A stretch of 64,000 nt of DNA from Candidatus Manganitrophaceae bacterium (GTDB lineage Bacteria > Nitrospirota > Nitrospiria > SBBL01 > Manganitrophaceae), in the NCBI GenBank assembly GCA_016200325.1, contig JACQEZ010000019.1, forward strand, positions 372,001-436,000, given 5' to 3'. The notes under the pieces were generated by a model. It worked only from the letters and a program-made list of their open reading frames with translations. It was not told the DNA's origin and did not search any database. Below, in pieces: positions 4,650-23,148 of this stretch. Each line of letters starts with the position of its first letter. Position 1 is the stretch's first letter. A program made the position numbers and the translations under genes.

Positions 4650-4695
4650 ATGGTAGCGGCGGAGGGCTTCGAACCCCCGACACGCGGATTATGAT
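4650..4695 (+). repeat. Left attachment repeat (46 bp, truncated tRNA-Met 3' end)
   Basis: Positions 4650-4695 are identical to 23072-23117. The copy holds the tRNA from its 3' end through the T arm and variable loop to the anticodon, then diverges at 4696. It lacks the D arm and the 5' acceptor strand, so it is not a functional tRNA. Confidence 0.95.
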
Positions 4696-4818
4696 AAGGA
4701 TTTGGGGCTATTTTGATAGATTTTTACAGGCTGTGACAGATTAAGATTTTCTCTAGATATCTCAATGCCTTATTGCCTGACCCATTGCTACAGATTGATC
4801 CCGGCTTTGACCCGTAAT

Positions 4819-4862
4819 CGGGACCAAAACCGTGACTGAACCGTGACCAAAACCGTGACCAA
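4819..4862. repeat. Iterated integrase arm-type sites, left end
   Basis: Four tandem variants of a roughly 12-base unit occur here: CGGGACCAAAA, CCGTGACTGA, ACCGTGACCAAA and ACCGTGACCAAC. The same unit appears twice at the other end of the element (23004-23028). Matching direct repeats near both ends of an integrase-bearing element are the expected layout of arm-binding sites for the integrase or a directionality factor. Confidence 0.6.
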
Positions 4863-5021
4863 CCGGAACGGGATATTTCCGTAGGAGAAGTGCCCAGGAG
4901 ATGCGTCATATGCGAGTCGATCTCACTGATAGAATGTGATTTATCTATGCCCTTCATCGGGCTAAAATCGGTTGTACTAAGACATGCGACAACTATTACT
5001 AGTTAATAAGGCTTGATTATT

Positions 5022-5599
5022 GTGCTTGTCTTTGTTGATGAGTCCGGTGATTCGGGTTTAAAAATAGGTCAAGGCTCTACAGAAAAGTTCATCGTCGCGC
5101 TTATTTTATTTGAAGATCATGATGAAGCAGGATCAGCAGACCAAAGGATCTCCCTCCTTAAGAAGGAATTGGGGCTTCCATCGTGTTATGAGTTCCACTT
5201 TAATAAGTGTAGGCCCGACCTGCGGAAAGCATTCTTGGAGGCCATGGAGACGGATTCAAATATAAGGAGTCATTTTATAAATACATAAGTGGTTTGGTAT
5301 TTCAGAATGCTAAACCTCAGCTTGATATGGCTACTGTAGTGTTAGATGGTAGTGGCAGTCAAGATTTCCGCTCTCAGTTAGATCGTTATTTAAAAAATAG
5401 GATCAATACTCCTGGAGAAAACCAAAGGATATTAAAAGTGAAGATCCAAGACTCCAAAAACAATAATCTTATTCAATTGGCTGATATGGTTTGCGGTGCG
5501 ATTGCGAGGAGTTATAAGAGGCACAAACGAGATGCCGATGATTATAGAAAAATCATACGGCCAAGAGAGTTTTACGTTCAGGAATGGCCTGCAAAATAA
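5022..5599 (+). pseudogene. DUF3800 protein gene broken by a frameshift
   Basis: The N-terminal part reads LVFVDESGDSG (start GTG at 5022, TAAGG upstream) through FHFNKCRPDLRKAFLEAME. The C-terminal part reads FKYKESFYKYISGLVFQN, LDGSGSQDF, KVKIQDSKNNNLIQLADMVC and RREF-like ending residues, in another frame. The frames meet near 5245-5258, where the first frame runs into a stop at 5286-5288. Together they give the normal DUF3800 length of about 190 residues with the acidic motifs kept. DUF3800 proteins are predicted RNase H-fold enzymes, often in mobile elements. The lesion may be real or a sequencing error. A structured RNA candidate follows four bases after the stop. Confidence 0.82.
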
Positions 5600-5602
5600 A
5601 GC

Positions 5603-5663
5603 GGCCTGAATCCTAGCCCTCAAGGGGCACGCACACCATACGGTGACAATTCGGATTCAGGCC
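5603..5663 (+). ncRNA. Three-way-junction structured RNA candidate beside DUF3800
   Basis: GGCCTGAATCC (5603-5613) pairs perfectly with GGATTCAGGCC (5653-5663), closing an 11 bp stem. Inside, GCCCT-CAA-GGGGC (5616-5628) and CACC-ATAC-GGTG (5634-5645) form two hairpins. This is a compact three-way junction immediately after the DUF3800 stop codon. A set of DUF3800-associated RNA motifs has been described by comparative genomics; assignment to one of them is inference. There is no T tract, which argues against a simple terminator. The strand is inferred from the upstream gene. Confidence 0.55.
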
Positions 5664-5715
5664 ATTTCCAATTGAAATGGTATCAGTATGATATCATGAT
5701 GTCAAGCATGATATC
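5662..5715. repeat. Two adjacent inverted repeats in AT-rich spacer
   Basis: CCATTTC (5662-5668) pairs with GAAATGG (5674-5680), and GATATCATG (5690-5698) pairs perfectly with CATGATATC (5707-5715). The second looks like an operator or a protein-binding dyad. The rest of the 5716-5810 spacer is AT-rich and shows nothing recognisable. Confidence 0.45.
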
Positions 5716-5810
5716 TTAAATATTAATCACTATAAGTTTATGATTTTTTATGGCTTTTCTGACTATCCCACCTTGCCTTATCTGCCTTAGCCTTTCAGTC
5801 GTACTTTATA

Positions 5811-5924
5811 CTATGTCTTTCTTACCTCAATTAGCTGCTGGGCTAATTGATCGAAAATTTCTTCCTGAGAGATCCTCAAGTATCTCATGAATTTTTGAGA
5901 TGTGAGTTTGGCGAACTGAGCCAC
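5811..5924 (-). CDS. Possible small protein downstream of Res
   Basis: A minus-strand frame is open from 5996 to the stop at 5811-5813 and ends with the protein-like residues FMRYLRISQEEIFDQLAQQL. The only standard start within it is GTG at 5922-5924, giving 37 residues; the coding-like sequence continues upstream (VPIAVLLCEAFSPQPVVAQF) without a start. It may be the tail of a decayed gene or a frameshifted small gene at the 3' end of the restriction operon. Confidence 0.3.
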   Translation of the reverse strand: MAQFAKLTSQKFMRYLRISQEEIFDQLAQQLIEVRKT

Positions 5925-6023
5925 TACCGGCTGAGGTGAAAAGGCCTCGCAAAGTAATACCGCAATGGGGACACCATTCCTTCTCTCGTTATTGAGCTAA
6001 ACCAAGTCCGCTCCCGGCCGGAT

Positions 6024-9000
6024 TCAGATGTGGGACATCAGGTCATCGATCTTTGTCGCTTTGATGAAGCGGGCGGGGTTCTCACTGACGGCCAGCGCTT
6101 CGAAGTGCGCCTCTCCACACTTTATCTTTGCGCTTTCCTTGTCCCGCAGGTCGTCGGTGAAGAGGCTGCTTTTTGTTTCGACCACGAAATAAAGACGCTC
6201 GGCTCCGTCTTTCTCTACTAGAACGGCCCAGTCTGGGTTATAGGTACCAAGCGGTGTGGGAACGCGGAACCAACCAGGGAGCTTGGCATAAACCTTGATC
6301 GCTTCGTTCTTTTCCAGTTGCTCGGCAAACGTGCGCTCGGTGTCGAACCGGTAGATCACCTGCTCATGGACCGACCTGTTGGAGTCGATCATCGACTTGA
6401 GATAGCCGATAAGTTCTTCGGTCTCGAATAGTTGCTGAGCGTAATAATCCTCCGTGCCAATACGCTGATATTTGATGCCATCCACCAGAGCGAGGCGCTT
6501 TGCGCGGTTGATAATCTCGGCGGTGAGTTCAATGAACTGTTGAGGGTTACGCTTGAAATCATCAAGCCGGGCGCTCTCCACCAGAATGCGGTGAATGCTG
6601 CGGCGGGTGAGTTGCGTCTTGTCTTGCAAATCGGTGAGGATATCGGGCAGATCGATGTCAGCCTCGTCGAGCGTCACGGGGGCGGAGGTGGCCGTCTCCT
6701 TCGTGTCCACGCCGGCGCGTCCGATAGAAAGGTCAGCCTTGCGCCATTGCAGCCGCATCCTGGCAATGACGAAGCTCGAATCTTTGATCGCCTTGATACA
6801 AGTCGCGAGCAATGCTTCATTGTCGAACTGTACACGGTAGGTGGTTTTGTGCTTGATACGGTCCCACAGCGCCTTGAACTCCGCACTGTGCAGCACGGCC
6901 TGGCGGGTCTTCACATGTTTGCGCTCGTCAGCATTCTTGATTTCAAACCGTCCCGCCAGCTTGCGAAGAATTTCCGCCACCTGCGGCAGTTGGGCTGCGA
7001 ACGGTTCCGGCAATGCCAGCGTGCCGTCCTTGAGCTTCTGGCGCAGGGTGTCCTGCACCTTGCCTTGGGCATTCACGAGACCGGCCGAGCGCAGATGCTC
7101 CCAAAGCACCTTTGACTGCTCGAGACCCAGAGGCGCGGGTTGGCCGTCGGCTCCCGTGGCGATGATCCCAGCAAATTGGTGGGTCTCCACAATGCCGAAG
7201 CGGATGCCGGTTTCGTCCTCGATCTCCTTCTGGAGTTTTTCCGCGAACTGTTCATAACTCTCCGTTGCGATCACGGTCAAAGTGTTCACCTCAAACCCGC
7301 GCAGGCGCTCGCCCTTCTGGTTCACGCACAGGCGCAAACCTCGCCCGATGGTCTGGCGGCGCTGCTGCTCGGAAGCCATCTCGCGAAGGGCGCATATTTG
7401 AAAGACGTTCGGATTGTCCCAACCTTCGCGCAGCGCGGAGTGGGAGAAGATAAACTTGAGAGGCGTGTCGAAGCTTAGCAGCTTCTCCTTGTCCCGCATG
7501 ATGAGGTTATAGGTGTCGTCGTCCGCCTTCGTATCCCCGCGCGTGTCCTTCAACATCTCCACCGTCTTGGTACCGACCTTTTTCTTGTCGATAGAGAAAT
7601 AGCCATCGTGCACGTCCTCTGCGGCGGTGGTCAGGTCTACTTCCTTGAAAAGGCTTTGGTAGTCAGGATGGTTGGCGAGGCGGCGGTATTCCTCCTCGAA
7701 GATGCGGGCATAGTCCCCCTTCACCGCGTTGCCGTCGGCATCGTATTGCCGGTATTTCTCCACGGCATCGACGAAGAACAGGCTGAGCACCTTGATCCCC
7801 TGCGGGGTGAGGCGCTTCTCCTTGTCCAGGTGCTCCTTGATAGTGCGGTGGATCATCTGACGCTGTATGGCCAGCGGGTCTACGTCACCATAGGATTGGC
7901 CAAGGCGAAGGTATTGCTCACCACCAGGGTAGCGCAGTTCCAGGAATTCATCATTCTTGGCGACGCGGATCTCACCCACCCGGCAGTCGCGATAAACGGC
8001 CCGCCCGGTAGTCATTTCCAGGTCGTCGCCATCCTGCACCATGATTTCGCGTCTTTGCACGCCGGTGACCGTCTGCACATCGACATCAACCTTGGCCGTG
8101 ATGACACCTCGTTTATTGCTCACGGAGAGCAACCGCAGATATGCTTTATTGTGACCGCCCTCTACAGAGGCTGCCGCTACTTCGATCTGCTTCACCAGCT
8201 TCCGCTCGTAGGCGTCCACCGCGTCGAGCTTGAAAACCATGTGGTGCGCCTCTTTGGGCGTCGCGGAATAACGCAGGTTGCACAGTGGATTCATCCGATC
8301 CATGGCCTTCTTACCCTTGCCGTCAAGTCCGCCTTCCACACTCTGCGGCTCGTCCACAATGATGATGGGGCGCGTCGCCCGGATCAGATCGACGGGCTTC
8401 TCCCAACCGGTATCCTCGTGACGGCGATACATCTTGTTCTTCGATTTCTCTCGGCGGGCGGCCTCGTCCGCTTCCTCCGTTTGCGCCTGTTGTTCGTCGC
8501 CGAACTTGTTGATCGCACCGACCGTCATGACCATGATTTGGATCTGTGGGCTGGTAGCGAAGTTCCGCACTTGGCCGAGCTTCTCCGAATCGTAACTGAA
8601 GAAGTCGAACGGCGGGCCTGCATAAAGCCCTTTCAAGTGCTCCTCGGCGGTCTCGATGGTATGATAGACGCCTTCTTTGATCGCCACCGATGGCACCACG
8701 ATGACAAATTTGGTGAATCCGTATCGTTTATTCAGCTCGAAGATGGTGCGAAGATAGACATAGGTCTTTCCGGTGCCGGTTTCCATCTCCACAGTGAAAT
8801 CGCCGGACGCGAGCAAGGCCGAGGGAGCTAGCCCGCCCCGAAGCTGGATGGCGTTCAGATTCTTCAGGATCTCGTCGTCCAGCAATGTCAACCGATTACC
8901 GATACCCATGTCATTTTCTGCGAAGCCCATCCGCTGCTGCGGGTCCGCGGGGTCGCGAGTGACGGTGAACTCGGTGCGGCAGGTCTCCTGCCCACGAAAT

Positions 9001-9065
9001 AGATCACATACCGCTTCGATGGCCTGAAGCTGGTAGTCGAGGTTAGGTTCGAAGTGCAGTTTCAT
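6024..9065 (-). CDS. Type III restriction-like Res subunit (helicase-nuclease)
   Basis: The 1013-residue protein is a superfamily 2 helicase with Walker A METGTGKT near residue 95, motif II IIIVDEPQS, a late motif SALREGWDNPNVFQ and motif VI RRQTIGRGLRL. The C terminus carries a PD-(D/E)xK nuclease signature: NPDWAVLV followed by YFVVETKSS. In type III systems Res translocates along DNA and cuts when Mod finds an unmodified site. It begins nine bases after the methyltransferase stop and is the last large gene of the cassette. Size and motif order are normal and there is no sign of inactivation. Confidence 0.9.
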   Translation of the reverse strand: MKLHFEPNLDYQLQAIEAVCDLFRGQETCRTEFTVTRDPADPQQRMGFAENDMGIGNRLTLLDDEILKNLNAIQLRGGLAPSALLASGDFTVEMETGTGKTYVYLRTIFELNKRYGFTKFVIVVPSVAIKEGVYHTIETAEEHLKGLYAGPPFDFFSYDSEKLGQVRNFATSPQIQIMVMTVGAINKFGDEQQAQTEEADEAARREKSKNKMYRRHEDTGWEKPVDLIRATRPIIIVDEPQSVEGGLDGKGKKAMDRMNPLCNLRYSATPKEAHHMVFKLDAVDAYERKLVKQIEVAAASVEGGHNKAYLRLLSVSNKRGVITAKVDVDVQTVTGVQRREIMVQDGDDLEMTTGRAVYRDCRVGEIRVAKNDEFLELRYPGGEQYLRLGQSYGDVDPLAIQRQMIHRTIKEHLDKEKRLTPQGIKVLSLFFVDAVEKYRQYDADGNAVKGDYARIFEEEYRRLANHPDYQSLFKEVDLTTAAEDVHDGYFSIDKKKVGTKTVEMLKDTRGDTKADDDTYNLIMRDKEKLLSFDTPLKFIFSHSALREGWDNPNVFQICALREMASEQQRRQTIGRGLRLCVNQKGERLRGFEVNTLTVIATESYEQFAEKLQKEIEDETGIRFGIVETHQFAGIIATGADGQPAPLGLEQSKVLWEHLRSAGLVNAQGKVQDTLRQKLKDGTLALPEPFAAQLPQVAEILRKLAGRFEIKNADERKHVKTRQAVLHSAEFKALWDRIKHKTTYRVQFDNEALLATCIKAIKDSSFVIARMRLQWRKADLSIGRAGVDTKETATSAPVTLDEADIDLPDILTDLQDKTQLTRRSIHRILVESARLDDFKRNPQQFIELTAEIINRAKRLALVDGIKYQRIGTEDYYAQQLFETEELIGYLKSMIDSNRSVHEQVIYRFDTERTFAEQLEKNEAIKVYAKLPGWFRVPTPLGTYNPDWAVLVEKDGAERLYFVVETKSSLFTDDLRDKESAKIKCGEAHFEALAVSENPARFIKATKIDDLMSHI

Positions 9066-9074
9066 GCTCCCTGC

Positions 9075-11030: not shown

Positions 11031-11044
11031 TGTGTCCTTGTTCT

Positions 11045-11806
11045 TCAAAGTTTTTCGCGAGCGGCGGCTTGAGCCGCCTCCACGCGCTTCAGTTCCAGGT
11101 TCAATTCTACCTGCCGCGCCACCTGCTTCTCCTTCACAGCGGCCGCACGCAGGCGGGCGATCTCCGCATCGAGCCGCGTGCATTCCAGCAAGGCGTCGCG
11201 CCGGGCGGCAGCGTGTTCGGCGTTGCTGGCTACCGAGAACACGCCGGTCACGCGGGCAGCATGGAAGGCAAGCAGTGTATCTATCCAGCCCTGATACAGT
11301 GCATAGAGCGTTGTTCGCGGCTGCTGACCCAGCGCCAAGGCACCACAGAAGGCCGGCCAGCACTCGCCATCGCGTGCCGCGTCCCATTCAGCGGCGACTA
11401 CCTCACCCTCAAGCACAGTCTTACCCGCTTTCCCCTGCGACCAGCGCTTGTGGGCGGCAGAAATTCCAGGTCGGCCTCCCTGCTCCGTCAACAGCAGCAG
11501 CGGATAAGGTACCGCGCGGTGCACCAGCTCCACCAGCCGCGCCGTCCTGGCCTCGCTCCGCAAGGTGAAACGCAGCACGGCGATCTCCAAATATTCCTGC
11601 ACGTCGTCTCGGTACTCGGGTACACCGATGGTCGTGGGCTTGAGAGCCGCCAGCCAGAACAACTCCTCGATGCCGTCATTGATAATGCGCTTGTCAGCGG
11701 CTGTGGGCGCACCATTTTCGAGCAACAGCTTCTTGGGCACGCGCTGATCCACGCGGCTGGTGGCTGGCAGGTCGAGGGCGGAGACGAGCGCGTCGTGGTT
11801 CATCAT
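11045..11806 (-). CDS. DUF4391 domain protein of restriction cassette
   Basis: The 253-residue protein fits DUF4391, typical of clusters with an SNF2 helicase and a type III methyltransferase. Recognisable segments are KKLLLENGAPTAADKRIIND, ELFWLAALKP and YLEIAVLRFTLR, ending in a long Ala/Arg/Glu-rich coiled-coil-like helix. The molecular role is unknown; a structural or DNA-tethering role beside the helicase is a guess. Its start overlaps the helicase stop by four bases (ATGA), indicating translational coupling. Confidence 0.78.
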   Translation of the reverse strand: MMNHDALVSALDLPATSRVDQRVPKKLLLENGAPTAADKRIINDGIEELFWLAALKPTTIGVPEYRDDVQEYLEIAVLRFTLRSEARTARLVELVHRAVPYPLLLLTEQGGRPGISAAHKRWSQGKAGKTVLEGEVVAAEWDAARDGECWPAFCGALALGQQPRTTLYALYQGWIDTLLAFHAARVTGVFSVASNAEHAAARRDALLECTRLDAEIARLRAAAVKEKQVARQVELNLELKRVEAAQAAAREKL

Positions 11807-14800
11807 GCCGCCTCGGACAACACCGCGAGCCAGGCCACCACCTCAAAGTCGTTAATACCCGCAAACTCGCCCTTCATGGCATGAGTGCCGCCGGGACTGA
11901 ACAGACTCGCCACGGCGCGCTCTTCGTTCTTACCGACCACCGAGGCCACGGCGGCGGCGAGCAGGCGCTGCGCAGCGCGCATGTCCTCGCCCTCCTTTGT
12001 CGCCTTATCGAAGCGGGCGCACGCCTCTGCATCGGGCAAGTCGCGCCCGAGGCAGAGGCGCTTGAGCCGGTCAAGAATCTGCTTGGCTTGCGTGTACGGG
12101 AGCAGCACCGTGCCACCGTCGCCCACATGCACGAGATAATGAGCACCAAGTGGATAGCCGGCCTCGGCGCTGCGCTTGGCGGCCTCGCCCTCGGCACGGA
12201 GGCAGAAGATGATGCCCGGCGCGATTTCCGCTTCTGTGGTAGTCGTGACCGCGCATGTGCCGAGCGGCAGACTCTCCAGCACGCCGGGATGTGCCTTGAG
12301 GTATTGCGCCAGATCGATACGGAAGTCGGTCAGTGTGAGGTCCGCAATGGAGATGCCGGTGGAGAGGTCCTCCAAATCGATCACTGCGTCCTGGAGTTTC
12401 AACAGTTGCTTGCGGCGGTACTCCAGATCGTTCATCTGGTTGCCGGATTGCTGCTCGATTAAATTCTCCTCGCCGGTCGCGGAGATGTCAAGCAGCACCA
12501 TGCGGCCGCTAACCCGCTGTTCCAGGTTGATATATTCCTCCAGCTCCATGTTGGGCCAGAAATTGACGAGTTGGATGCACTCATTGGGCGAGCCGATGCG
12601 ATCAATACGGCCGAAGCGCTGAATGATGCGCACAGGGTTCCAGTGGATGTCATAGTTAATCAGCCAGTCGCAGTCTTGGAGGTTTTGACCTTCGGAAATA
12701 CAGTCCGTGGCGATGAGCAGGTCAAGCTCGCCGTCGCCGGCGAGTTCCTCGGGCCGCTCCTTGGACCGGGGTGCGAACGTGGTAAGGATCGATGCCAGGT
12801 CTTTGCGCAGCCCGTGCAGCGTCGTCTGGTTTCGACCCGTGCCGGTGACAAGCGCCGTATCAATACCAAGGGTTATTTTCGCCCAAGGTGCGAGCTGATC
12901 GTATAGATATCGGGCGGTGTCCGCAAAGGCAGTGAAGACGATCACCTTGCGGTTGCCGAGGTTGATCGGGTTACGGCATTTGTGTTCGATCATCTCACGC
13001 AGGGCAGCAAGCTTAGCGTCACGGGAGGCATCCACCTGGGCCGCCGCCGCGTGGAGGGTCGCCAAACGGTTGCGGTCCTCTATCAGATCCTGTTTCCAGC
13101 GGATGAGGTCCACGTCCTTCAGCAGCACCTTCACCTTGCGTCCGACGAGCAAACTCTCGAAGGCGGAATCGTCGAGGTCCACATCTTCGATGTCGATCTC
13201 CTCCAACTCCTCGGCGTGGCTCTCGATATGGGCCAGGGTGACCTCAACGTCTCGTAGTTGACGCTGCACCGTGAGGGCAAACGATGGAACCGCGCTTTCC
13301 ATGCGCTTAAGCACGTTGACACGCAACAAGTGGATCAGGCTTTCCTCGCGGTCGGCTTGACGGAAGAAGCCCTCGCCACCGCGAATCTCGGTACTGTACT
13401 TCTTGTCGTAAGCCGCCTGCTTGTGTGGCAGCACGTACCGGAGGGGCGCGTAGGAGGCGAGGGTTAGGCGGCGGATTTCATTGTTGATCTCGCGGATCGA
13501 GCGGAATTCGCCGGCTCGGTCCACATCGGCTTTGATGTTGATCGGTTTCAATCGGTCTGGAAAGCGTCCGGTTTCGGCGGTGCCGTAATACTTCTCGATA
13601 TGCTTGCGCGAACGGGCGATGGTGAGCAGATCAAGCAGAGTGAAGTAATCGAAGCCGAGCATCTCGATCAGCCGCGAGGGCGTCCGATCCGGGTCATCGA
13701 AATCGAGCCAGCGGTTGAACTGCTTCTGCGCGAGGCGCGTGGTGCTGTCGATGCTGCCGATGCCGTGATCCAGCAGAGCCGTGTCGTCGCCTTCTGTAGC
13801 GAAGGCGATCTGGTTCCGTAGATCGGCCATGCGGTTGTTGACCGGCGTCGCCGAGAGCATGAGTACGCGGGTCTTGACGCCTTCCTTGATGATCTTGCGC
13901 ATGAGGCGATCGTAGCGGGTCTCGCTGCCAACCCGCGGCGTTTTCTTGTTGCGGAAATTGTGAGATTCGTCAATGACGACAAGGTCATAGTTGCCCCAAT
14001 TGACATGTGCCAGATCGATATCGCCTGACAAACCGCCATCGCGTGACAAGTCCGTGTGATTGAGGACGTCATAGTTGAAGCGGTCCGGGGCAAGAAAGTT
14101 CCGCCGGTCATTCGTCTTATAGAGAGTCCAATTGTCGCGCAGCCGCTTCGGGCAGAGCACCAGCACCCGATCATTTCGCAGTTCGTGGTATTTGATGATC
14201 GCGAGCGCCTCGAAGGTTTTCCCAAGGCCGACACTGTCTGCGATGATGCAGCCGCCGAATCGGTTGAGCTTGTCGATCGCGCCGACCACACCGTCGCGCT
14301 GGAATCTGTAAAGTTTCTTCCAGACCACCGTATTGCGGATACCGGTCGCCGACTTGACGATCTGATCCTCGTCGAGCGCATCGTCGCGGTCCCTGAATAA
14401 ATGGAAGAGAATTAGAAAATAAATGGATGACGGCGGCTTGCGCTCAAAGATATTTTCGAGTTGTGCCAGTAAGACGTTTTTTGCCTCTGGCGAAGCGGGA
14501 AGACTATTCCAAAGGGCGGTAAACCAAGCACCGAGCATGTTCCACTCGTCTGAGTTCTCGGAACACTGAATCAGACCGAACTGATTACCCGGCATGAGAC
14601 CAAGGCCATCCGTCGTGAAGGGACAGTTTCCGGTAATGACTCGACGCAGAGCAGCGTCCATGTGACCCATAATCAAAGTGGACTGAGGAAGCACTCCGGT
14701 TGCTCCCCGGAGTTCAGTCTTGTTCTTGATCCACTCGGCACACAAGCGGGCAAGCCAGCGACCTTGGAGACGGTTTCGGAAAGGGCGATCCTTTTCCGAG

Positions 14801-15012
14801 CCGAATAAGCCGAGGTCATTCCCCTCAGCGACGGGTAGTATTAATCGACAGTAATCAAGTTGCGCCAGTAACTCACATACATCAGCAAAAGCGAAAAGCG
14901 ACAGTGCAGGTGAAGCGACATCCAAGTGGGAATTCAGTGTAATACATTTGCGTAGTTCATCGACGACCCGGTCGTTGCCCGTGTTTTTAATCAGCCTCAA
15001 TGTGCGCCCCAA
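11803..15012 (-). CDS. SNF2-family helicase with N-terminal PLD-like region
   Basis: The 1069-residue ATPase leads the cassette. Residues 1-200 resemble the PLD-like N terminus found on SNF2 proteins in restriction clusters (GNDRVVDELRKCI, FRNRLQGRWLARLCAEW, FTTDGLGLMPGNQF). The helicase core follows: ADSVGLGKTFEA near residue 260, VVIDESHNF near 350, MLSATPVNN, then the second lobe with VIVFTAFADTARYLYDQL, ATDCISEGQNL and QRFGRIDRIGS. The start is uncertain: TTG at 15012 or TTG at 15000, neither with a clear ribosome site. It probably moves along or remodels DNA for the methyltransferase and nuclease. Confidence 0.87.
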   Translation of the reverse strand: MGRTLRLIKNTGNDRVVDELRKCITLNSHLDVASPALSLFAFADVCELLAQLDYCRLILPVAEGNDLGLFGSEKDRPFRNRLQGRWLARLCAEWIKNKTELRGATGVLPQSTLIMGHMDAALRRVITGNCPFTTDGLGLMPGNQFGLIQCSENSDEWNMLGAWFTALWNSLPASPEAKNVLLAQLENIFERKPPSSIYFLILFHLFRDRDDALDEDQIVKSATGIRNTVVWKKLYRFQRDGVVGAIDKLNRFGGCIIADSVGLGKTFEALAIIKYHELRNDRVLVLCPKRLRDNWTLYKTNDRRNFLAPDRFNYDVLNHTDLSRDGGLSGDIDLAHVNWGNYDLVVIDESHNFRNKKTPRVGSETRYDRLMRKIIKEGVKTRVLMLSATPVNNRMADLRNQIAFATEGDDTALLDHGIGSIDSTTRLAQKQFNRWLDFDDPDRTPSRLIEMLGFDYFTLLDLLTIARSRKHIEKYYGTAETGRFPDRLKPINIKADVDRAGEFRSIREINNEIRRLTLASYAPLRYVLPHKQAAYDKKYSTEIRGGEGFFRQADREESLIHLLRVNVLKRMESAVPSFALTVQRQLRDVEVTLAHIESHAEELEEIDIEDVDLDDSAFESLLVGRKVKVLLKDVDLIRWKQDLIEDRNRLATLHAAAAQVDASRDAKLAALREMIEHKCRNPINLGNRKVIVFTAFADTARYLYDQLAPWAKITLGIDTALVTGTGRNQTTLHGLRKDLASILTTFAPRSKERPEELAGDGELDLLIATDCISEGQNLQDCDWLINYDIHWNPVRIIQRFGRIDRIGSPNECIQLVNFWPNMELEEYINLEQRVSGRMVLLDISATGEENLIEQQSGNQMNDLEYRRKQLLKLQDAVIDLEDLSTGISIADLTLTDFRIDLAQYLKAHPGVLESLPLGTCAVTTTTEAEIAPGIIFCLRAEGEAAKRSAEAGYPLGAHYLVHVGDGGTVLLPYTQAKQILDRLKRLCLGRDLPDAEACARFDKATKEGEDMRAAQRLLAAAVASVVGKNEERAVASLFSPGGTHAMKGEFAGINDFEVVAWLAVLSEAA

Positions 15013-15473
15013 ACAATGGATACTGGAAACTTGGGTCTCGCGTTAACACGCTTGTTGGTTTTAAAGTGCGCAATGAAGTATTTGGAAATTCAGAAGCCAG
15101 AAAAGGCTTTCTTCGTATCTCGTTAAAGTATCTTAGGTGCCGAGTATACTCAAAAGGGAAAAGGATCGCAAGCCGGGTGTAAGTCGATTTGAAAATAGTG
15201 GGACATATTAAATCGGACAAGAAAAGTCGATTTATAGATGCCGCCCTGGTACCCGGCCAAGCCATGGGAATGCACCCTTTCTCATCTCGAAGGAGTGAAG
15301 GATCGTCGGACTACCTTGCTCGTTTCTCTTGACGTTATAGATATGGTCAACATAATATGTGTCTCAAAACAACTGGAGAGTTCGTGCAATTAGGGATGAG
15401 AACGATCTGTTTGCAATATATTCACAATGTTTAGTTGTGCTCTGGTGGAAATACCTTTTAAAAGAGGGGCATC
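15013..15473. other. Intergenic region between divergent genes
   Basis: This 460-base AT-rich gap separates the restriction cassette from a divergent hypothetical gene and should hold both promoters. I see no strong hairpins or tRNA and no ORF with coding character. A roughly 90-codon minus-strand frame at 14987-15265 overlaps the helicase start and lacks protein-like composition. Confidence 0.5.
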
Positions 15474-16304
15474 ATGAAACGGGAGGAAGTAGCCAACATC
15501 ATTAACAGCAAGTACCAGCGGTACACAGCCGAAGTGATTAACCTTATCAAAGCACTCCCTTCAAACTGCCGCCAAAGCGGCGATGACTCTGGCTTGAAAA
15601 ATGTGTGGGAGGAATGGAAAGCGCAGATTCAGGGCGAAGAATCCCCCCTTTTCTACGCTTATGAGGAAACGATCCGTGGTCTCTGCCGAAGTGTCATCCA
15701 GGCTCTACCTCAGGATGAGCAGTCGTTATTATGGCTTTTGTCCGACGGTTATTTTGATAGTGATAACGATTCTTCCTCTGCCGGCGCTCCTACGTTGGAC
15801 GCGGTAGAAGACGAGCTTTATAATCGTATTTGGTCCATTGGTGCGGATGAAGATCTCTTGTCGGACCAGGAAGAGGATGAAGATCTATTAGGTGAGGATC
15901 ATGAACTAACTGCTACCGAATCTAAAATCAATCAAGATAAACCAAGTTATGCCGCTAAAATAGTTGGAAAAAGAATCAGAGATGTTTACATCTCCAGGAA
16001 AACCGATAATGCGGCGACTCAAATTATTCTTATCTTCACGGATTATGATACTTGTGTATTTACTATCCAGCATTCTCTTCTTGAAGTATTATTCACCAGA
16101 GTAAATGACCCTAAATTTGATGATCGACTCCATGATAAACATTTCAAGCGCATCGATAGCGCGGTTTTCAGTGGAACCTCTGACAAAGAGGTCCATGAGC
16201 TTTATCATTGCCTATGGACCAAGGCCACAGTAGATCCAAAATACGATAAAGCTGAATGGAGAATGCTTGGCGATATTTTGAGGGAGTCTGGATTTAGGGT
16301 TTGA
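15474..16304 (+). CDS. Hypothetical acidic protein divergent from restriction cassette
   Basis: The 276-residue protein has an N-terminal helical part (MKREEVANIINSKYQRYTAE), a strongly acidic linker near residues 120-150 rich in Asp and Glu, and a C-terminal domain with IRDVYISRKTDNAATQIILI and DYDTCVFTIQHSLLEV. The start has AGAGGGG eight bases upstream. No family is recognised. Its lower GC and position suggest element cargo. A regulator, anti-restriction factor or extra defence component are all possible. Confidence 0.65.
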   Translation: MKREEVANIINSKYQRYTAEVINLIKALPSNCRQSGDDSGLKNVWEEWKAQIQGEESPLFYAYEETIRGLCRSVIQALPQDEQSLLWLLSDGYFDSDNDSSSAGAPTLDAVEDELYNRIWSIGADEDLLSDQEEDEDLLGEDHELTATESKINQDKPSYAAKIVGKRIRDVYISRKTDNAATQIILIFTDYDTCVFTIQHSLLEVLFTRVNDPKFDDRLHDKHFKRIDSAVFSGTSDKEVHELYHCLWTKATVDPKYDKAEWRMLGDILRESGFRV

Positions 16305-16410
16305 TTGAGAATCTACTGCTGATTCGATTATAAAATGACCTTGGCTTTGGCACCTGACCCTTCTCAGAAAGTCCTTGCGCATCGGTATGCATTTCCGTAG
16401 CCATAAAACT

Positions 16411-16821
16411 ATGGCTTTTACTCACAATTGCACAAATTGCGGTGTGGATTTCACTTCCGATCGCAGGCGGTGTCGTTTCCATTCCGTCTCGTGCTCGAAT
16501 AGTTATCGATATAAACTAAAAGAACAGCGGATTGAGACCGCAGTCAGCCAGTTATCAATAAAGCAACAAAAATTCGTATCTAGGGTCATATCCGGTAAAT
16601 CGCAGACGCAAGCACTCATTGATGCTGGATACAATGTAGGTAGCAGCGCAAATGCGCGTGCGTTAGCATCGAAGGAGATGAAAAGCCCTGAAGCGAAAGA
16701 GGCTCTTATGGTATTGCTAGAGGAGAATGATCTGGAGCTTTCACGGCTTCTGAATCTGATCGGTCAAGGTCTATCAGCCATCCGTACCATCTCCATACCG
16801 AAATTGGAAGTGATGACATGA
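16411..16821 (+). CDS. Zinc-finger protein resembling terminase small subunit
   Basis: The N terminus has a Cys4 zinc finger (CTNCGVDF, then two further Cys in CRFHSVSC), and the rest matches the helix-turn-helix part of terminase small subunits: LSIKQQKFVSRVISGKSQT, then ALIDAGYNVGSSANARA and KSPEAKEAL. Small terminases recognise packaging sites. Phage satellites use their own copy to divert helper capsids, and no large subunit is present here. I chose ATG 16411 where the zinc finger begins; ATG 16375 would add 12 residues. Its stop overlaps the next small gene (ATGA). A plain regulatory HTH protein remains possible. Confidence 0.6.
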   Translation: MAFTHNCTNCGVDFTSDRRRCRFHSVSCSNSYRYKLKEQRIETAVSQLSIKQQKFVSRVISGKSQTQALIDAGYNVGSSANARALASKEMKSPEAKEALMVLLEENDLELSRLLNLIGQGLSAIRTISIPKLEVMT

Positions 16822-16994
16822 CAATCAAAACAAAGGCGACGAGCAAGCCAGGGAAGACACTGAAGAAGCAGTTAAAGACCTCTCAAAAGCGGATAAAGTA
16901 CAAAGCCCAAGAGGAAAATTGGGGCCTGCCCCTGGTGGTGTCAAAACGCTTGCGCTCGGGATATAACGACCCCTCATCCAGCAAGGGAAAATAG
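16818..16994 (+). CDS. Small basic protein coupled to terminase-like gene
   Basis: An ATG overlapping the previous stop (ATGA at 16818-16821) opens a 58-residue frame that starts MTIKTKATSKPGKTLKKQLK and ends SKGK. It is Lys-rich with no recognised family. The ATGA overlap is the main support for it being a gene. The span 16995-17113 after it shows nothing. Confidence 0.4.
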   Translation: MTIKTKATSKPGKTLKKQLKTSQKRIKYKAQEENWGLPLVVSKRLRSGYNDPSSSKGK

Positions 16995-17113
16995 ATCTTC
17001 GCGGTCAAACCGTTCGGTCTGCCGATGATCTTGCTGCCCTTGCCCAGGGGGTAAAGAGATGTGCTAAATTCTGCTCCAATTCATCAATGTGCCGGCGGAG
17101 TGGGGTTGAAAGT

Positions 17114-17575
17114 TCAGGACAAGCCCTTTTCAATCCTTTCCTTTTTTGCTTCCAAAAAAATCTCAAAAGCACAATCGCGCTCCACCGCTGAAACATCGAA
17201 CCCCAGAACGGAGCGAAGCCGATCCACGCGCGGCTTGGCTGGGGTCCGTGGATCAGGCAAGGTATATTCCTCCAACGGCATTACAGCAATCGCTGCAACG
17301 ATCAAGGCGATACGATATTGATCCCCCGGACTGGGAGTTTCTGAAACTGGTGGGATCGGGTTGGCCTCCTCATCAATAACAGGCAGTATCCGGGGGAGAA
17401 ACCTTTCTCCATCGGGGGACTGCACTCCGCCAAGACGGTTGGCTTCGGCAGGGGGAGGACCCCAAATCTCCACCATGTCGGGCCGTTGGGACAGGATCTC
17501 CGACCAGATGAAGAGATCCCCCACCGGAATAACCGGCCGGGTATCATTGATTTTTCTGAGATACCGCTGTCTCAT
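17114..17575 (-). CDS. Hypothetical protein, end of replication operon
   Basis: The 153-residue protein has a central Pro-rich stretch and the segments RPVIPVGDLFIWSEIL and QYRIALIVAAIAVMPLEEY, with a short hydrophobic segment near residue 95. No family is recognised. Its start overlaps the upstream HTH gene by four bases (ATGA), so it belongs to the minus-strand operon led by the excisionase-like gene. Confidence 0.6.
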   Translation of the reverse strand: MRQRYLRKINDTRPVIPVGDLFIWSEILSQRPDMVEIWGPPPAEANRLGGVQSPDGERFLPRILPVIDEEANPIPPVSETPSPGDQYRIALIVAAIAVMPLEEYTLPDPRTPAKPRVDRLRSVLGFDVSAVERDCAFEIFLEAKKERIEKGLS

Positions 17576-18219
17576 AATGGTGCCTCTTCTTTAACTCGTT
17601 TTATTTGATCGGCCCTGCGTCGTTTCCTTTTCTCGTCAAGGACTTCAACCCGTTTAATTATGGCTCGGAATCGACGCATAGATGGCAGGCGAGGATGTTC
17701 TCCAAACTGCATCCTCCGATACCGCCAAACGGTCTTCAATGAAACCCCGACAAGACGCGCTGTCTCTCTGATGGAACATCCCTCGGACAGAAGGGCGACA
17801 ATCGCCTTCTGCTTATCGGATGAAATGCGAGGAGCGCTCGTCCTTCGGGCAAGTTCCTTGAAGAGGGGAAGATGCCGCCGCTCAATCCTCGACGCCCCAT
17901 TGACCTTGCTGATTTTCAACCCCCTCCGCTTCGCGGCGGAGCGCACGCGGAAATAAGAAAGACCGCGAAAACCACAAATCCCAGAAAGAAAGCCCATCTC
18001 GCGTATCGTTACCCAAGGATATACCTCCCTTGGCCGAGGGGAGAGAATTTCGTTCCGGGTGCGTTTGCGGGGCCTTCCAAAACACTTCTCCCGAATGCGC
18101 TTCGGAACAACCAGAAGATCGGCCCGGTCCGTCACCTCCTCCCCGTTCAAATACGTCAACCGCTTGCCGATCAGAAGGATGGTGGGACGACCTGGAACAG
18201 AAAAGATCATATCAGCCAT
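17572..18219 (-). CDS. Helix-turn-helix protein in replication operon
   Basis: The 215-residue basic protein carries a clear helix-turn-helix near residues 133-168: SSDKQKAIVALLSEGCSIRE followed by TARLVGVSLKTVWRYRR, as in resolvase/transposase HTH_23 or HTH_38 folds. The N-terminal half (KRLTYLNGEEVTDRADLLVV) looks like a small beta-rich domain. A DNA-binding role in element regulation or origin binding is inferred. It lies nine bases after the preceding operon gene and overlaps the next by four bases. Confidence 0.65.
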   Translation of the reverse strand: MADMIFSVPGRPTILLIGKRLTYLNGEEVTDRADLLVVPKRIREKCFGRPRKRTRNEILSPRPREVYPWVTIREMGFLSGICGFRGLSYFRVRSAAKRRGLKISKVNGASRIERRHLPLFKELARRTSAPRISSDKQKAIVALLSEGCSIRETARLVGVSLKTVWRYRRMQFGEHPRLPSMRRFRAIIKRVEVLDEKRKRRRADQIKRVKEEAPL

Positions 18220-18228
18220 GATCGAATG

Positions 18229-18642
18229 TTATACCTCGCTTAAAAAAATAGTGACGGGTTCCTTGTTATTGCCATGTTCGCTTTCCCTTCTCCTTGTCGC
18301 CACCGCTTCGGCGATCTCAAGGAGAATGTCCGCCATCTCCTGCCACTTCCCGGCGTTTCCTTCCTTCTCCGCCTCCCCCTGGATGAGGATGGCGACCTCC
18401 CATCGGTCTTTTTCCGCGTCGGTGAGCTTCCCCCAAGCGCAATGGGCCAGCTTCGGCCATAGATCCCACTTCATTTTCTCGAAATCGGCTAGTGTATTGA
18501 CCAGTCTGAAGATTCCCCGCCGGATGTACGGGAGGGCCTTCTCCACCCGCTCGTCGGGGATCTCGACCGTTTCCCCTTCTCGGATCGACCGGACCTGATC
18601 GCCGATCCTGATTTTAACGGGCTTCGACGCAATGACCTTCAT
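18229..18642 (-). CDS. Hypothetical protein coupled to primase
   Basis: The 137-residue protein begins with a short beta-rich part (MKVIASKPVKIRIGDQVRSI, then EGETVEIPDERVEKALPYIR) and continues as helices. The start resembles small phage proteins with a KVKI-type strand pair, but no family is certain. Its ATG overlaps the primase stop by four bases, so it is translationally coupled. Confidence 0.6.
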   Translation of the reverse strand: MKVIASKPVKIRIGDQVRSIREGETVEIPDERVEKALPYIRRGIFRLVNTLADFEKMKWDLWPKLAHCAWGKLTDAEKDRWEVAILIQGEAEKEGNAGKWQEMADILLEIAEAVATRRRESEHGNNKEPVTIFLSEV

Positions 18643-20885: not shown

Positions 20886-20888
20886 GAC

Positions 20889-21101
20889 TCACTCCGTAGA
20901 GGAATTCAATCCAATTGCCGGCCTGTACCCTTCCCGAATTAGTTTTTCAATGGCCTCCTCCGGAATCATGACGGCCCTACCGATTCGGACAGTCGGAAGT
21001 CGCCGTTGAAAAATCATTTTTCTGATCGTTGCTTCTTTCAACCCACTCAGCCTCGCGGCTTCCGGGACACGCAATAACCTTGACATACTCAGCGTAGCCA
21101 T
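20889..21101 (-). CDS. Excisionase/AlpA-like helix-turn-helix protein
   Basis: The 70-residue protein is a MerR-type HTH of the HTH_17 class: LLRVPEAARLSGLKEATIRK followed by MIFQRRLPTVRIGRAVMIPE. Such proteins act as excisionases or as AlpA-like activators in integrative elements. It leads the minus-strand replication operon and sits across a divergent regulatory region from the integrase side, where such a switch is expected. Confidence 0.8.
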   Translation of the reverse strand: MATLSMSRLLRVPEAARLSGLKEATIRKMIFQRRLPTVRIGRAVMIPEEAIEKLIREGYRPAIGLNSSTE

Positions 21102-21129
21102 TCATTTTCCTCCTATATCCTGGTTGATA

Positions 21130-21185
21130 TTGACAATGACAGCATCTTACTCTAGAATTCGTAATAATGTAAAACGCTACGAATT
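21130..21185 (+). promoter_or_regulatory. Divergent promoter with overlapping operator dyad
   Basis: TTGACA (21130-21135), a 17-base spacer and TAGAAT (21153-21158) form a near-consensus plus-strand promoter. A perfect inverted repeat, AATTCGTA (21156-21163) and TACGAATT (21178-21185), overlaps its -10 and start site. ATGACAG occurs three times between 21135 and 21266. The region separates the excisionase-like operon from the integrase operon, so it is the likely genetic switch. Confidence 0.65.
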
Positions 21186-21275
21186 ATGACAGATAAAAAT
21201 TTAAAAGAAGAACAATGGGTTGGAAGCTTTATTTTTTGTTGTTCTAACTGCGACGTTTTATGACAGAGGTTTCCT

Positions 21276-21956
21276 ATGAAGAGGTGGTATCCACTTCGTG
21301 ATGAGTCTGCCCATTTCTTGGGGTACGTTAATCTGTACCGGATGAAGGGTGCCGACCTGCTTTTGACTCCGGAGAGCAAGATATGGAGCGGTGGTATTCC
21401 TTCGACACTGGAAGGTAAGGCATGGCGTGAGGCCATGGATGAAATCTGTGCGCATCTGGTCCAGATCGCGGAACCGCACCAGCAGCCGGGCATCAACCGG
21501 AGAAAGGCGCTACAGGGGTTCGCGCGGAAGACCACCCTACATGCCCATCAAACAATGTATCGTCTCGATGATAAATCTCTGGAGCTGGTTCCGACCTCGC
21601 GTATCACCTTTTATTCCCAGCCCAGGAGAAAAATTTTTGGTCTTGATGATAAACCGCAGGAGCCCGCTCCGGTCCCACCAAATTTCCATTTACCTGGACG
21701 TATGTGGACGCTGGCTACTTTTCTTATTCTGGACATCAAACGCCGACCAGAGAGGCTGAAACAATGCCAACACCATCAGAACGGGAGACAGTGCCCTTTC
21801 CTGGTATGGGACGAGTCCAGAAACAACATACGGAAGTTTTGCACCGACAAGGACTGTTGCAAAGACCGAAATAGGATGGCTCAGGAAAAGTTACGACAGA
21901 AGGTACGACTGACGCTTAAACATAAGGAGGCTAAACATGGCAAGAGCAGGCGGTAA
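21276..21956 (+). CDS. Hypothetical protein with C-terminal Cys/His zinc motif
   Basis: The 226-residue protein precedes and overlaps the integrase gene by 20 bases. Its C terminus has CQHHQNGRQCPFLVWDES, then KFCTDKDCCKDRNRMAQEK, which resembles a CGNR-type zinc finger and suggests nucleic-acid binding. The middle (residues 90-150) contains two related segments, MYRLDDKSLELVP and IFGLDDKPQEPAP, hinting at an internal repeat. The function is unknown; co-transcription with the integrase suggests a role in integration control. Confidence 0.6.
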   Translation: MKRWYPLRDESAHFLGYVNLYRMKGADLLLTPESKIWSGGIPSTLEGKAWREAMDEICAHLVQIAEPHQQPGINRRKALQGFARKTTLHAHQTMYRLDDKSLELVPTSRITFYSQPRRKIFGLDDKPQEPAPVPPNFHLPGRMWTLATFLILDIKRRPERLKQCQHHQNGRQCPFLVWDESRNNIRKFCTDKDCCKDRNRMAQEKLRQKVRLTLKHKEAKHGKSRR

Positions 21957-23058
21957 GGATCGGGGCCTTGTCGAAAGACCGAAAGAATCGGGGATCTGGT
22001 GGGTCAGGGTGTGGCACGAAGGTAAAGAGCACTGGTACAGGGTCGGAGCCAAGAGCGCTGCAAAAGACTTATACCGCACCATCAAGGATAAACAGCGGCG
22101 GGGTCGATTCTTTCCGGAGGAATACGAGCGGAAGAAAAAGGTTCCACTTAAAGACTTCATGGATCAGGTGATCGCCGTTTCAAAAAAACAATCGCTCCGG
22201 GATGATAAACGCTTTGCTGAGTTTTGGGGGGAGATATTCAAAGACCGACCGATCGACACCATCAAGCCTGCGGAGATCGAGAAGGTCCAAATCCGGCTCC
22301 TGGAAGGCGATGGGAAGGAAGACATGGGACGGGAGCCCAGCACGGTCAACCGGTATACTGACTTCCTACGACATGTTTTCTATTTGGCGATCCGGGACAA
22401 CCTAATTCAGTCGAACCCGGCCGCAAGGATCAAGCGATTCAAAGAGCCTGCCGGGAAGATCCGGTTTCTCTCAGAGACGGAGGAGAACCTTCTCGGGGAA
22501 AAGATCATCAATCCACTTCATAGGAAGATGGTTCAATTTGCACTCAATACCGGCCTTCGACAATCCGAGCAATTCAAGCTCCGATGGGAGAATATCGACA
22601 CGGAGAGAAGGACTCTTTTTATTCCACGGTCAAAGTCTGGGGAGTCCCGTTCAGTCCCACTCAACGATCAAGCACTTGGGGTACTTCGATCTTTAACTTC
22701 CTGGATGACCTCCCCTTGGGTTTTCCCATCTGAGGTTTCTTCAAGTCCGATGGATGCTCGAAATTTCTACGGGAGGATCTATCTCCCCGCCCTGAAGGCC
22801 GCAAAACTGAACGGGGAAGTAAACTGGCACACGCTCCGACACACGTTCGCCAGCCGTCTTGTCATGGCGGGGGTCGATCTTCGGACCGTTCAGAGCCTGA
22901 TGGGGCATAAGACAATCGCGATGACGATTCGGTATGCCCACCTCTCCGACGCGCATAGACTCGACGCAGTGAACCGCCTCTTTTCGAGTAAAAAAGAAAA
23001 CGTAACCGTGACCAAAACCGGGACCAAAGAGGAAGTTATATCAGGGGGAGTGTCGTAA
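21937..23058 (+). CDS. int: Tyrosine site-specific integrase
   Basis: The 373-residue recombinase has an N-terminal arm-binding part, a SAM-like core-binding domain (residues about 70-165) and a catalytic domain with Arg in NTGLRQSEQFKLRW (about 208), HTLRHTFASRL (about 298), LMGHKTIAMT (about 323) and the tyrosine nucleophile in IRYAHLS (about 332). Its ribosome site AGGAGG lies six bases before the ATG. It ends 13 bases from the 46 bp att repeat in tRNA-Met, the usual position for an integrase using that tRNA. Its last codons overlap the right-end arm-type repeats. Confidence 0.95.
   Translation: MARAGGKDRGLVERPKESGIWWVRVWHEGKEHWYRVGAKSAAKDLYRTIKDKQRRGRFFPEEYERKKKVPLKDFMDQVIAVSKKQSLRDDKRFAEFWGEIFKDRPIDTIKPAEIEKVQIRLLEGDGKEDMGREPSTVNRYTDFLRHVFYLAIRDNLIQSNPAARIKRFKEPAGKIRFLSETEENLLGEKIINPLHRKMVQFALNTGLRQSEQFKLRWENIDTERRTLFIPRSKSGESRSVPLNDQALGVLRSLTSWMTSPWVFPSEVSSSPMDARNFYGRIYLPALKAAKLNGEVNWHTLRHTFASRLVMAGVDLRTVQSLMGHKTIAMTIRYAHLSDAHRLDAVNRLFSSKKENVTVTKTGTKEEVISGGVS
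23004..23028. repeat. Iterated integrase arm-type sites, right end
   Basis: ACCGTGACCAAA and ACCGGGACCAAA follow each other inside the last codons of the integrase gene, where they encode VTKTGTK. They match the repeats at 4819-4862 near the other end of the element. Confidence 0.55.
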
Positions 23059-23071
23059 GTTATTGAAAAGG

Positions 23072-23117
23072 ATGGTAGCGGCGGAGGGCTTCGAACCCCC
23101 GACACGCGGATTATGAT
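23072..23117 (+). repeat. Right attachment repeat (46 bp) within tRNA-Met
   Basis: It is identical to 4650-4695 and covers the 3' part of the intact tRNA-Met from the CCA end to the anticodon. Insertion therefore restores a complete tRNA from element-supplied sequence. Confidence 0.95.
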
Positions 23118-23148
23118 TCCGCTGCTCTACCAACTGAGCTACGCCGCC
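23073..23148 (-). tRNA. tRNA-Met (anticodon CAT)
   Basis: The 76-base gene folds fully: acceptor GGCGGCG with CGCCGCT (a G-U at pair 1-72), D stem GCTC/GAGC, anticodon stem GCGGA/TCCGC around loop ATCATAA, variable loop GTGTC, T stem GGGGG/CCCTC, discriminator A and encoded CCA. The CAT anticodon could also belong to a tRNA-Ile2 modified to read ATA; identity elements are not decisive by eye. Initiator features (three G-C pairs GGG/CCC in the anticodon stem) are absent. It is the integration target of the neighbouring element. Confidence 0.9.

What the first reader, a model, noticed from the sequence alone, without database searches (positions are those of the whole stretch)
4650..23117. Satellite-like element in tRNA-Met carrying a restriction cassette
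A 46 bp perfect direct repeat bounds 18.4 kb holding integrase, an excisionase-like regulator, a primase-helicase, a small-terminase-like gene and no capsid, tail or large terminase. That is the plan of a phage satellite. Its cargo is a four-gene restriction-type cassette plus DUF3800. An element that could both parasitise a phage and defend its host from others is of interest, and this gene combination is not one I recognise as a described family.
Basis: partly seen in the sequence, partly recalled or inferred. Interest (0 to 1): 0.85.

Follow-up and report, generated by a model that had tools for sequence, protein, structure and literature searches.

The report
tRNA-inserted satellite-like element with restriction cargo
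An 18.4-kb mobile DNA element sits in a tRNA gene of a Nitrospirota bacterium, carries its own integration and replication genes, two proteins related to late genes of a phage found in a sister species, and an intact four-gene restriction system, so it probably rides in another virus's particles while protecting its host; this general kind is already known, but this lineage and this form of restriction cassette do not appear to have been described.

Summary
A 46-bp perfect repeat (4650-4695, 23072-23117) copies the 3' part of an intact tRNA-Met. Four same-genus genomes have nth, tRNA-Met and trpS without the element. Integrase arm-type iterons sit beside both ends, as in two related elements. 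The element has no capsid, tail, large terminase, lysis or conjugation genes. Its core is int diverging from a tight AlpA-primase-orf137-HTH-orf153 operon.

The satellite reading is partly supported. New evidence: the small-terminase-like protein and orf153 both have homologues in one prophage of a congener, near its large terminase and just past its major capsid gene. Related tRNA elements of 6-14 kb occur across Nitrospirota; one carries a prohead protease and a true small terminase. Against it: the small-terminase-like protein is truncated, its closest relative lies in a defence island, and no helper or shared packaging site was found.

The cargo is an intact type III restriction-modification pair with a pseudo-PLD/SNF2 motor and DUF4391; this order was identical in all 58 loci with all four genes. 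DUF3800 is frameshifted. Satellites with defence cargo are already described; new are the Nitrospirota lineage and an apparently unnamed extended type III cassette.

The parts
4650..4695 (.). att copy distal to the integrase (46-bp core, partial tRNA-Met duplicate)
   Evidence: 46/46 identical to 23072-23117
23072..23117 (.). att copy inside the intact tRNA gene
23073..23148 (-). tRNA-Met (CAT), the integration target, left intact
   Evidence: ARAGORN; Rfam tRNA
4828..4860 (+). three AACCGTGACC iterons, probable integrase arm-type or excisionase sites
   Evidence: same arrangement in L091 and L090
23004..23025 (+). two AACCGTGACC iterons in the 3' end of int, probable arm-type sites
5013..5599 (+). 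DUF3800 gene, broken by a frameshift (5013-5288 and 5294-5599)
6024..9065 (-). Res: type III restriction subunit, helicase plus PD-(D/E)XK endonuclease domain, 1013 aa
   Evidence: PF19778 1.6e-33, PF04851 1.1e-10; PADLOC REase_III 1252 bits
9075..11039 (-). Mod: type III adenine methyltransferase, about 654 aa
   Evidence: PF01555 4.8e-31; PADLOC MTase_III 2e-218
11045..11806 (-). DUF4391 protein, 253 aa; confident model, no match among solved folds
   Evidence: PF14335 4.9e-74; pLDDT 95.9; fold search
11803..15012 (-). SNF2-type motor with an N-terminal degenerate PLD-fold domain, 1069 aa; overlaps DUF4391 by 4 bp
   Evidence: PF00176, PF00271; PLD fold; HxK absent in the family alignment
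15474..16304 (+). orf276, unknown, in a low-GC segment
   Evidence: no family match; GC
16375..16821 (+). small-terminase-like protein, 148 aa: zinc-finger-like start plus HTH, C-terminal region missing
   Evidence: phrog_51 3e-10; homologues in the G002 prophage and the G014 island
17114..17575 (-). orf153, homologue of a late-module phage gene just past the major capsid gene
   Evidence: G002 prophage 36%, E 2e-15; family in 53 of 80 related viral contigs
17572..18219 (-). HTH DNA-binding protein, 215 aa
   Evidence: HTH_7 7.5e-8; phrog_664 1.1e-7
18229..18642 (-). orf137, small protein after the primase; look-alikes after the replication gene in related elements
   Evidence: by eye in L079, L080, L091, L299, L300
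18639..20885 (-). primase-helicase, DUF3854 + DUF3631, 748 aa
   Evidence: PF12307 2e-45, PF12965 1.3e-14
20889..21101 (-). AlpA-like excisionase/regulator, 70 aa
   Evidence: HTH_17 1.4e-10; phrog_66 excisionase 1e-7
21276..21956 (+). orf226, upstream of int; C-terminal half conserved upstream of int in L091
21937..23058 (+). tyrosine integrase, 373 aa
   Evidence: PF00589 4.4e-36; phrog_1 4.9e-64

Best explanation
The 18.4 kb at 4696-23117 is a site-specific integrative element of the phage-satellite (PICI-like) type. Int recombines a 46-bp core at the 3' part of tRNA-Met and leaves the tRNA gene intact. AlpA probably promotes excision and switches on a five-gene operon whose primase-helicase replicates the excised circle. 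The element makes no particle and most likely transfers in capsids of a helper phage related to a prophage found in a sister species. Two of its proteins (small-terminase-like and orf153) are homologues of late-module genes of that prophage and may act in packaging or in interference with the helper. Its cargo, about half its length, is an extended type III restriction-modification cassette: Mod marks host DNA, Res cuts unmarked DNA, and a pseudo-PLD/SNF2 motor plus DUF4391 assist, so that element and host exclude other phages. Shown: boundaries, gene content, homology to phage genes, open reading frames and motifs of the cassette. Inferred: mobility, helper dependence, packaging, restriction activity.
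For: Perfect att repeat in tRNA-Met, element-free site in four congeners, conserved iterons at both ends. int / AlpA-primase divergent plan without virion genes, as in the PICI criteria (PMC6092414). Two proteins with homologues in one congener prophage 17 kb apart; orf153's only relative among 197 genomes; the orf153 family lies downstream of capsid genes in related viral contigs. Eight further DR-bounded tRNA elements share the core, one with prohead protease and P27 small terminase. Cassette open and in an order conserved in 58 of 58 loci.
Against: Small-terminase-like protein lacks the C-terminal region of its homologues; its nearest relative is in a defence island, two others stand without evident phage neighbours. 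No shared packaging site with the G002 prophage. No large terminase of that lineage in this genome. 18.4 kb is above the usual 12-15 kb of PICIs. No data on excision, induction or transfer.
Confidence: 0.6

Rival explanations
1. An integrative defence island that moves without phage capsids, or no longer moves. It excises by Int/AlpA, replicates briefly, and passes between cells by generalised transduction, transformation or a conjugative element in trans; the phage-like genes are domesticated DNA-binding proteins.
For: The nearest relative of the small-terminase-like protein is beside a BREX-related system, not a phage. The protein is truncated. No helper or packaging site found. GC mosaic suggests piecemeal gain.
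Against: orf153 has its only relative in a phage late module and is translationally coupled into the replication operon. A related element carries a prohead protease and a true small terminase. No relaxase or conjugation gene was seen.
Confidence: 0.32
2. A decayed prophage that lost its virion genes and took in a restriction cassette.
For: Contains phage-related genes and a truncated small-terminase-like gene.
Against: Core genes are open and tightly packed. The same core without virion genes recurs at different tRNAs in eight other elements, so the absence is not a local accident. Integrase and primase are not those of the related prophage.
Confidence: 0.06

Closest known systems
PICIs of Gram-negative bacteria (PMC6092414)
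   Same: int diverging from AlpA and a replication module, tRNA/att integration, no virion or lysis genes, sometimes a small terminase, accessory cargo
   Different: 18.4 kb rather than 12-15 kb; DUF3854+DUF3631 primase; truncated small-terminase-like protein; helper, induction and transfer untested
Satellite-like tRNA-integrated elements carrying ARMADA, Druantia, Zorya (PMC12458937)
   Same: direct repeats with one copy in the 3' end of a tRNA gene, prophage-like integrase, AlpA-like excisionase, own replication gene, large defence payload; packaging by helpers also only proposed there
   Different: there 16-20 bp repeats, HUH replication proteins, E. coli; here a 46-bp repeat, a primase-helicase, a type III cassette, and homologues of late phage genes
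Type III restriction-modification (EcoP15I type; PMC4490356)
   Same: Mod and Res full length with methyltransferase, helicase and endonuclease domains
   Different: two further genes, SNF2 motor and DUF4391, in a fixed order before Mod in 58 of 58 loci
SauUSI (PLD plus helicase restriction enzyme; PDB 7clg)
   Same: PLD fold at the N terminus of a helicase protein (best fold hit, E 1.9e-6)
   Different: HxK pair absent in this family, so nuclease activity is unlikely; encoded with Mod, Res and DUF4391

Membership tests
PICI / phage satellite | Conserved plan: integrase, master regulator, replication module | tested here: met
   criteria
PICI / phage satellite | No phage structural or lytic genes | tested here: met
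   No such gene among the element proteins scanned; the one late-module homologue is orf153, of unknown role
PICI / phage satellite | Specific att site with flanking direct repeats | tested here: met
   That the site is never used by prophages was not tested
PICI / phage satellite | Size about 12-15 kb | tested here: not met
   18.4 kb; about 9 kb without the restriction cassette. 'Typically' in the source, so a loose criterion
PICI / phage satellite | Packaging function (small terminase, or helper cos/pac site) | tested here: inconclusive
   Truncated small-terminase-like protein; no shared site with the G002 prophage. Only some PICIs encode terS
PICI / phage satellite | Induced, replicated and packaged by a helper phage, and interferes with it | not testable with these tools
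   No reads or cultures; a candidate helper lineage is named from homology only
Type III restriction-modification | Adjacent Mod methyltransferase and Res helicase-endonuclease | tested here: met
   both open, motifs readable
Type III restriction-modification | Methylates one strand of an asymmetric site and cuts ATP-dependently | not testable with these tools
   needs methylome and biochemistry
Type III restriction-modification | Mod and Res alone are sufficient (two-gene system) | not tested
   SNF2 and DUF4391 precede them in fixed order in 58 of 58 loci; need for them is unknown
DISARM / BREX / ARMADA (considered for the SNF2+MTase pair) | DrmA/B/C, PglZ/BrxC, DUF499 or YprA-family helicase present | tested here: not met
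   None among the cassette proteins as best match; DrmD/DpdE matches cover the shared helicase core and NCBIfam scores are far below cut-off

The most novel reading that the evidence does not exclude
The element is a satellite of a specific phage lineage, that of the G002 prophage. It uses a shortened small terminase and a homologue of the gene just past the helper's capsid gene to redirect or poison helper head assembly, while a four-gene restriction machine not yet named as a system (pseudo-PLD/SNF2 motor, DUF4391, Mod, Res) excludes competing phages: parasite and defender in one element, in a phylum for which I found no reported phage satellite.
Probability: 0.25. Interest if true: 0.7.

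Novelty: new variant of a known kind. Interest (0 to 1): 0.5.

Why it matters
It extends PICI-like elements with exact boundaries to Nitrospirota and names a candidate helper lineage, which makes the helper question testable. It also shows that DUF4391 (a confident model without a match among solved folds) and a probably dead PLD/SNF2 motor belong to one fixed four-gene unit with type III Mod and Res across many phyla, so two proteins of unknown role can be tested in a defined system.

Tried and rejected
Searches that found nothing: primase patterns in genome and viral contigs; orf153 and the small-terminase-like protein against deposited phages and as alignments against IMG/VR, so the viral relatives were reached through the capsid protein of the G002 prophage; a shared packaging site between element and prophage, only a 19-bp match inside int; a solved fold for DUF4391; a relative of the HTH protein beyond its HTH. 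The capsid-family search of the own genome returned nothing but its controls were silent too, so it proves nothing. The only large-terminase match in the own genome (1e-5) is a PhoH-like ATPase on reading. Rejected readings: a full small terminase (truncated); DUF3800 as active cargo (frameshift); DISARM/BREX/ARMADA membership (gene content); decayed prophage (the same capsid-less core recurs); SbcC/SbcD-like genes after Res as a constant part (seen in L073, not detected in the other 80 loci).
Full report
WHAT IS THERE. The window lies in a 4.21-Mb, 20-contig genome. The sizes of its congeners (5.2, 4.6 and 4.3 Mb) fit the published 'Candidatus Manganitrophus' genomes (Mn1 5.2 Mb; SA1 and SB1 4.3 Mb; PMC9040806). 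I could not confirm this with a labelled record, so organism and phylum (Nitrospirota) are inferences. A 46-bp perfect repeat lies at 4650-4695 and 23072-23117. The right copy is the 3' part of an intact tRNA-Met at 23073-23148, minus strand. In four same-genus genomes the core occurs once, with tRNA-Met and trpS on one side and nth on the other, and no such element between. The window has nth left of 4650 and trpS right of the tRNA, so the 18.4 kb between is an insertion. The iteron AACCGTGACC (at most one mismatch) occurs six times in 64 kb; five are beside the two att copies (4828, 4839, 4851; 23004, 23016), and the same arrangement flanks the related elements L091 and L090. These are probably integrase arm-type or excisionase sites.

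CORE GENES. int (21937-23058, +), with orf226 before it, diverges from AlpA (20889-21101, -), the DUF3854+DUF3631 primase-helicase, orf137, an HTH protein and orf153. The five minus-strand genes are a few bases apart or overlap (coordinates), so they probably form one operon. There is no portal, large terminase, capsid, tail, lysis or conjugation gene among the proteins scanned.

RELATED ELEMENTS. Integrase and primase searches in class and phylum gave further tRNA elements bounded by exact repeats: L080 (tRNA-Ser, 44 bp, 8.2 kb), L085 (tRNA-Arg, 47 bp, 6.0 kb), L090 (tRNA-Cys, 45 bp, 7.5 kb), L091 (tRNA-Gln, 56 bp, 5.8 kb), L299 (tRNA-Pro, 41 bp, 7.6 kb), L300 (tRNA-Leu, 21 bp, 9.6 kb), L304 (tRNA-Ser, 61 bp, 13.8 kb) and L305 (tRNA-Gly, 51 bp, 12.4 kb). 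They have int, mostly AlpA and a replication protein, often with a small orf137-like protein after it; on reading their frames I saw no portal, capsid, tail or large-terminase gene (not all frames were scanned against family libraries). L080 carries a prohead protease (PF04586 1.5e-39) and a P27-type small terminase (PF05119 6.6e-13), so at least one is satellite-like by its packaging genes. L299 carries an unbroken DUF3800 gene.

LINK TO A PHAGE. The small-terminase-like protein (16375-16821) matches phrog_51 at 3e-10. In 197 class genomes it has four relatives outside its own. One, in congener G002, lies in a prophage about 3.7 kb upstream of a large terminase (phrog_2 2.9e-17; phrog_24361 6.5e-26), followed by a portal/adaptor protein, a scaffold-like protein and a major capsid protein (phrog_267 1.6e-56). 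orf153 (17114-17575) has exactly one relative outside its own genome in those 197: in the same prophage, about 1.1 kb past the capsid gene (36%, E about 1e-15). The two relatives lie about 17 kb apart; with roughly 690 Mb searched, chance co-location is of order 1e-4 (my estimate). From the G002 capsid protein, 80 related viral contigs were fetched. A profile of the two orf153 sequences gave six best first-round hits (E 0.002-0.017), all on the capsid strand and about 0.6-1.25 kb past the capsid gene; iteration extended this to 53 contigs. A profile from viral sequences alone ranks orf153 first among the element's proteins (E 1.7e-4), though those sequences were gathered by a search that began with orf153. 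So orf153 very probably belongs to a family of late-module phage genes; its role is unknown.

LIMITS OF THAT LINK. The window's small-terminase-like protein lacks the C-terminal region that both full homologues have. Its nearest relative (G014, about 40%, with the same zinc-finger-like start) lies beside a DUF499/DUF1156 BREX-related system and a DUF3800 gene, not in a phage. Two other relatives stand without evident phage neighbours. No relative of the G002 large terminase occurs in this genome, and no shared packaging site was found.

CARGO. Res, Mod, DUF4391 and SNF2 are all open and full length; Walker, DEAD-type, DPPY and PD-ExK motifs are readable, family matches. The order SNF2-DUF4391-Mod-Res occurs in four other genomes of the phylum and in named genomes across many phyla. 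Of 84 loci examined, all 58 in which all four genes were detected have that order; many of the rest are cut by contig ends. A Methanobrevibacter locus (L166) had SNF2, DUF4391 and Mod. Extra DNA of over 500 bp is often present between Mod and Res or between DUF4391 and Mod. The first 240 residues of the SNF2 protein model as a PLD fold (best hits SauUSI, Zucchini, NgoAVII, BfiI), but the family lacks the HxK pair, so this domain is probably catalytically dead. DUF4391 models with high confidence (pLDDT 95.9) and matches no solved fold below E 0.03. PADLOC recognises Mod and Res as type III; its best match for the SNF2 protein is an unnamed candidate 'HKD+Snf2', and DUF4391 has none; NCBIfam names neither. 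The open-access library mentions DUF4391 in one paper, in passing. DUF3800 at the distal end is frameshifted and abuts a DUF3800-IX RNA.

HOW IT MOST LIKELY WORKS. Excision and circularisation by Int with AlpA, replication by the primase-helicase, transfer in particles of a helper related to the G002 prophage. The small-terminase-like protein could still bind a packaging site or block the helper's own small terminase; orf153 could meddle with head assembly. Mod methylates host and element DNA, Res cuts incoming unmethylated DNA, and the SNF2 motor and DUF4391 probably help Res translocate or choose targets. Only boundaries, content, homology and open frames are shown; the rest is inference from the named families.

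KNOWN OR NEW. PICI criteria are in PMC6092414. tRNA-integrated satellite-like elements with defence payloads are described in PMC12458937, and defence genes on phage satellites in PMC8791490 (abstract only). This is therefore not a new kind. New here, as far as I could search: a Nitrospirota lineage of such elements, a candidate helper lineage, and the fixed four-gene extended type III cassette. The held library gave no paper on Nitrospira phage satellites or DUF3631 in satellites; it is not the whole literature.

Noticed in passing
window 5599-5663, minus strand: A DUF3800-IX RNA (Rfam RF02968, 65.5 bits) abuts the 3' end of the frameshifted DUF3800 gene, on the opposite strand.
   Followed up: no
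window 4696-6000 and 15400-17000: GC is 0.41 and 0.45 there against 0.57 in the cassette and 0.53 in the replication operon, so the element looks like a mosaic of separate acquisitions.
   Followed up: no
L080:8755-16957 (G053:C10): An 8.2-kb tRNA-Ser element with int, two HTH regulators, CHC2 and DUF3631 replication genes, a prohead protease and a P27 small terminase but no capsid: a good satellite candidate in Nitrospirota.
   Followed up: partly
L182/L191 (G014:C60): The nearest relative of the small-terminase-like protein sits in an island with DUF499, DUF1156 methyltransferase, a 1141-aa helicase-like protein and DUF3800, i.e. a BREX-related system.
   Followed up: partly
L073:15595-20000 (G062:C10): Right after Res in one copy of the cassette lie a SbcD/YhaO-like metallophosphoesterase and a SbcC/YhaN-like ATPase frame; not detected in the 80 named loci.
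   Followed up: partly
L188:7033-7470 and IMG/VR loci L195-L274: A family of small phage proteins of unknown function encoded downstream of the major capsid gene, found in 53 of 80 contigs.
   Followed up: partly
L079:2189-7360 (G053:C2): A 1723-aa DUF4011 + AAA + MTES_1575 nuclease protein lies next to an int/AlpA/DUF3631 gene set at tRNA-Ser: defence-like cargo on a related gene set.
   Followed up: no
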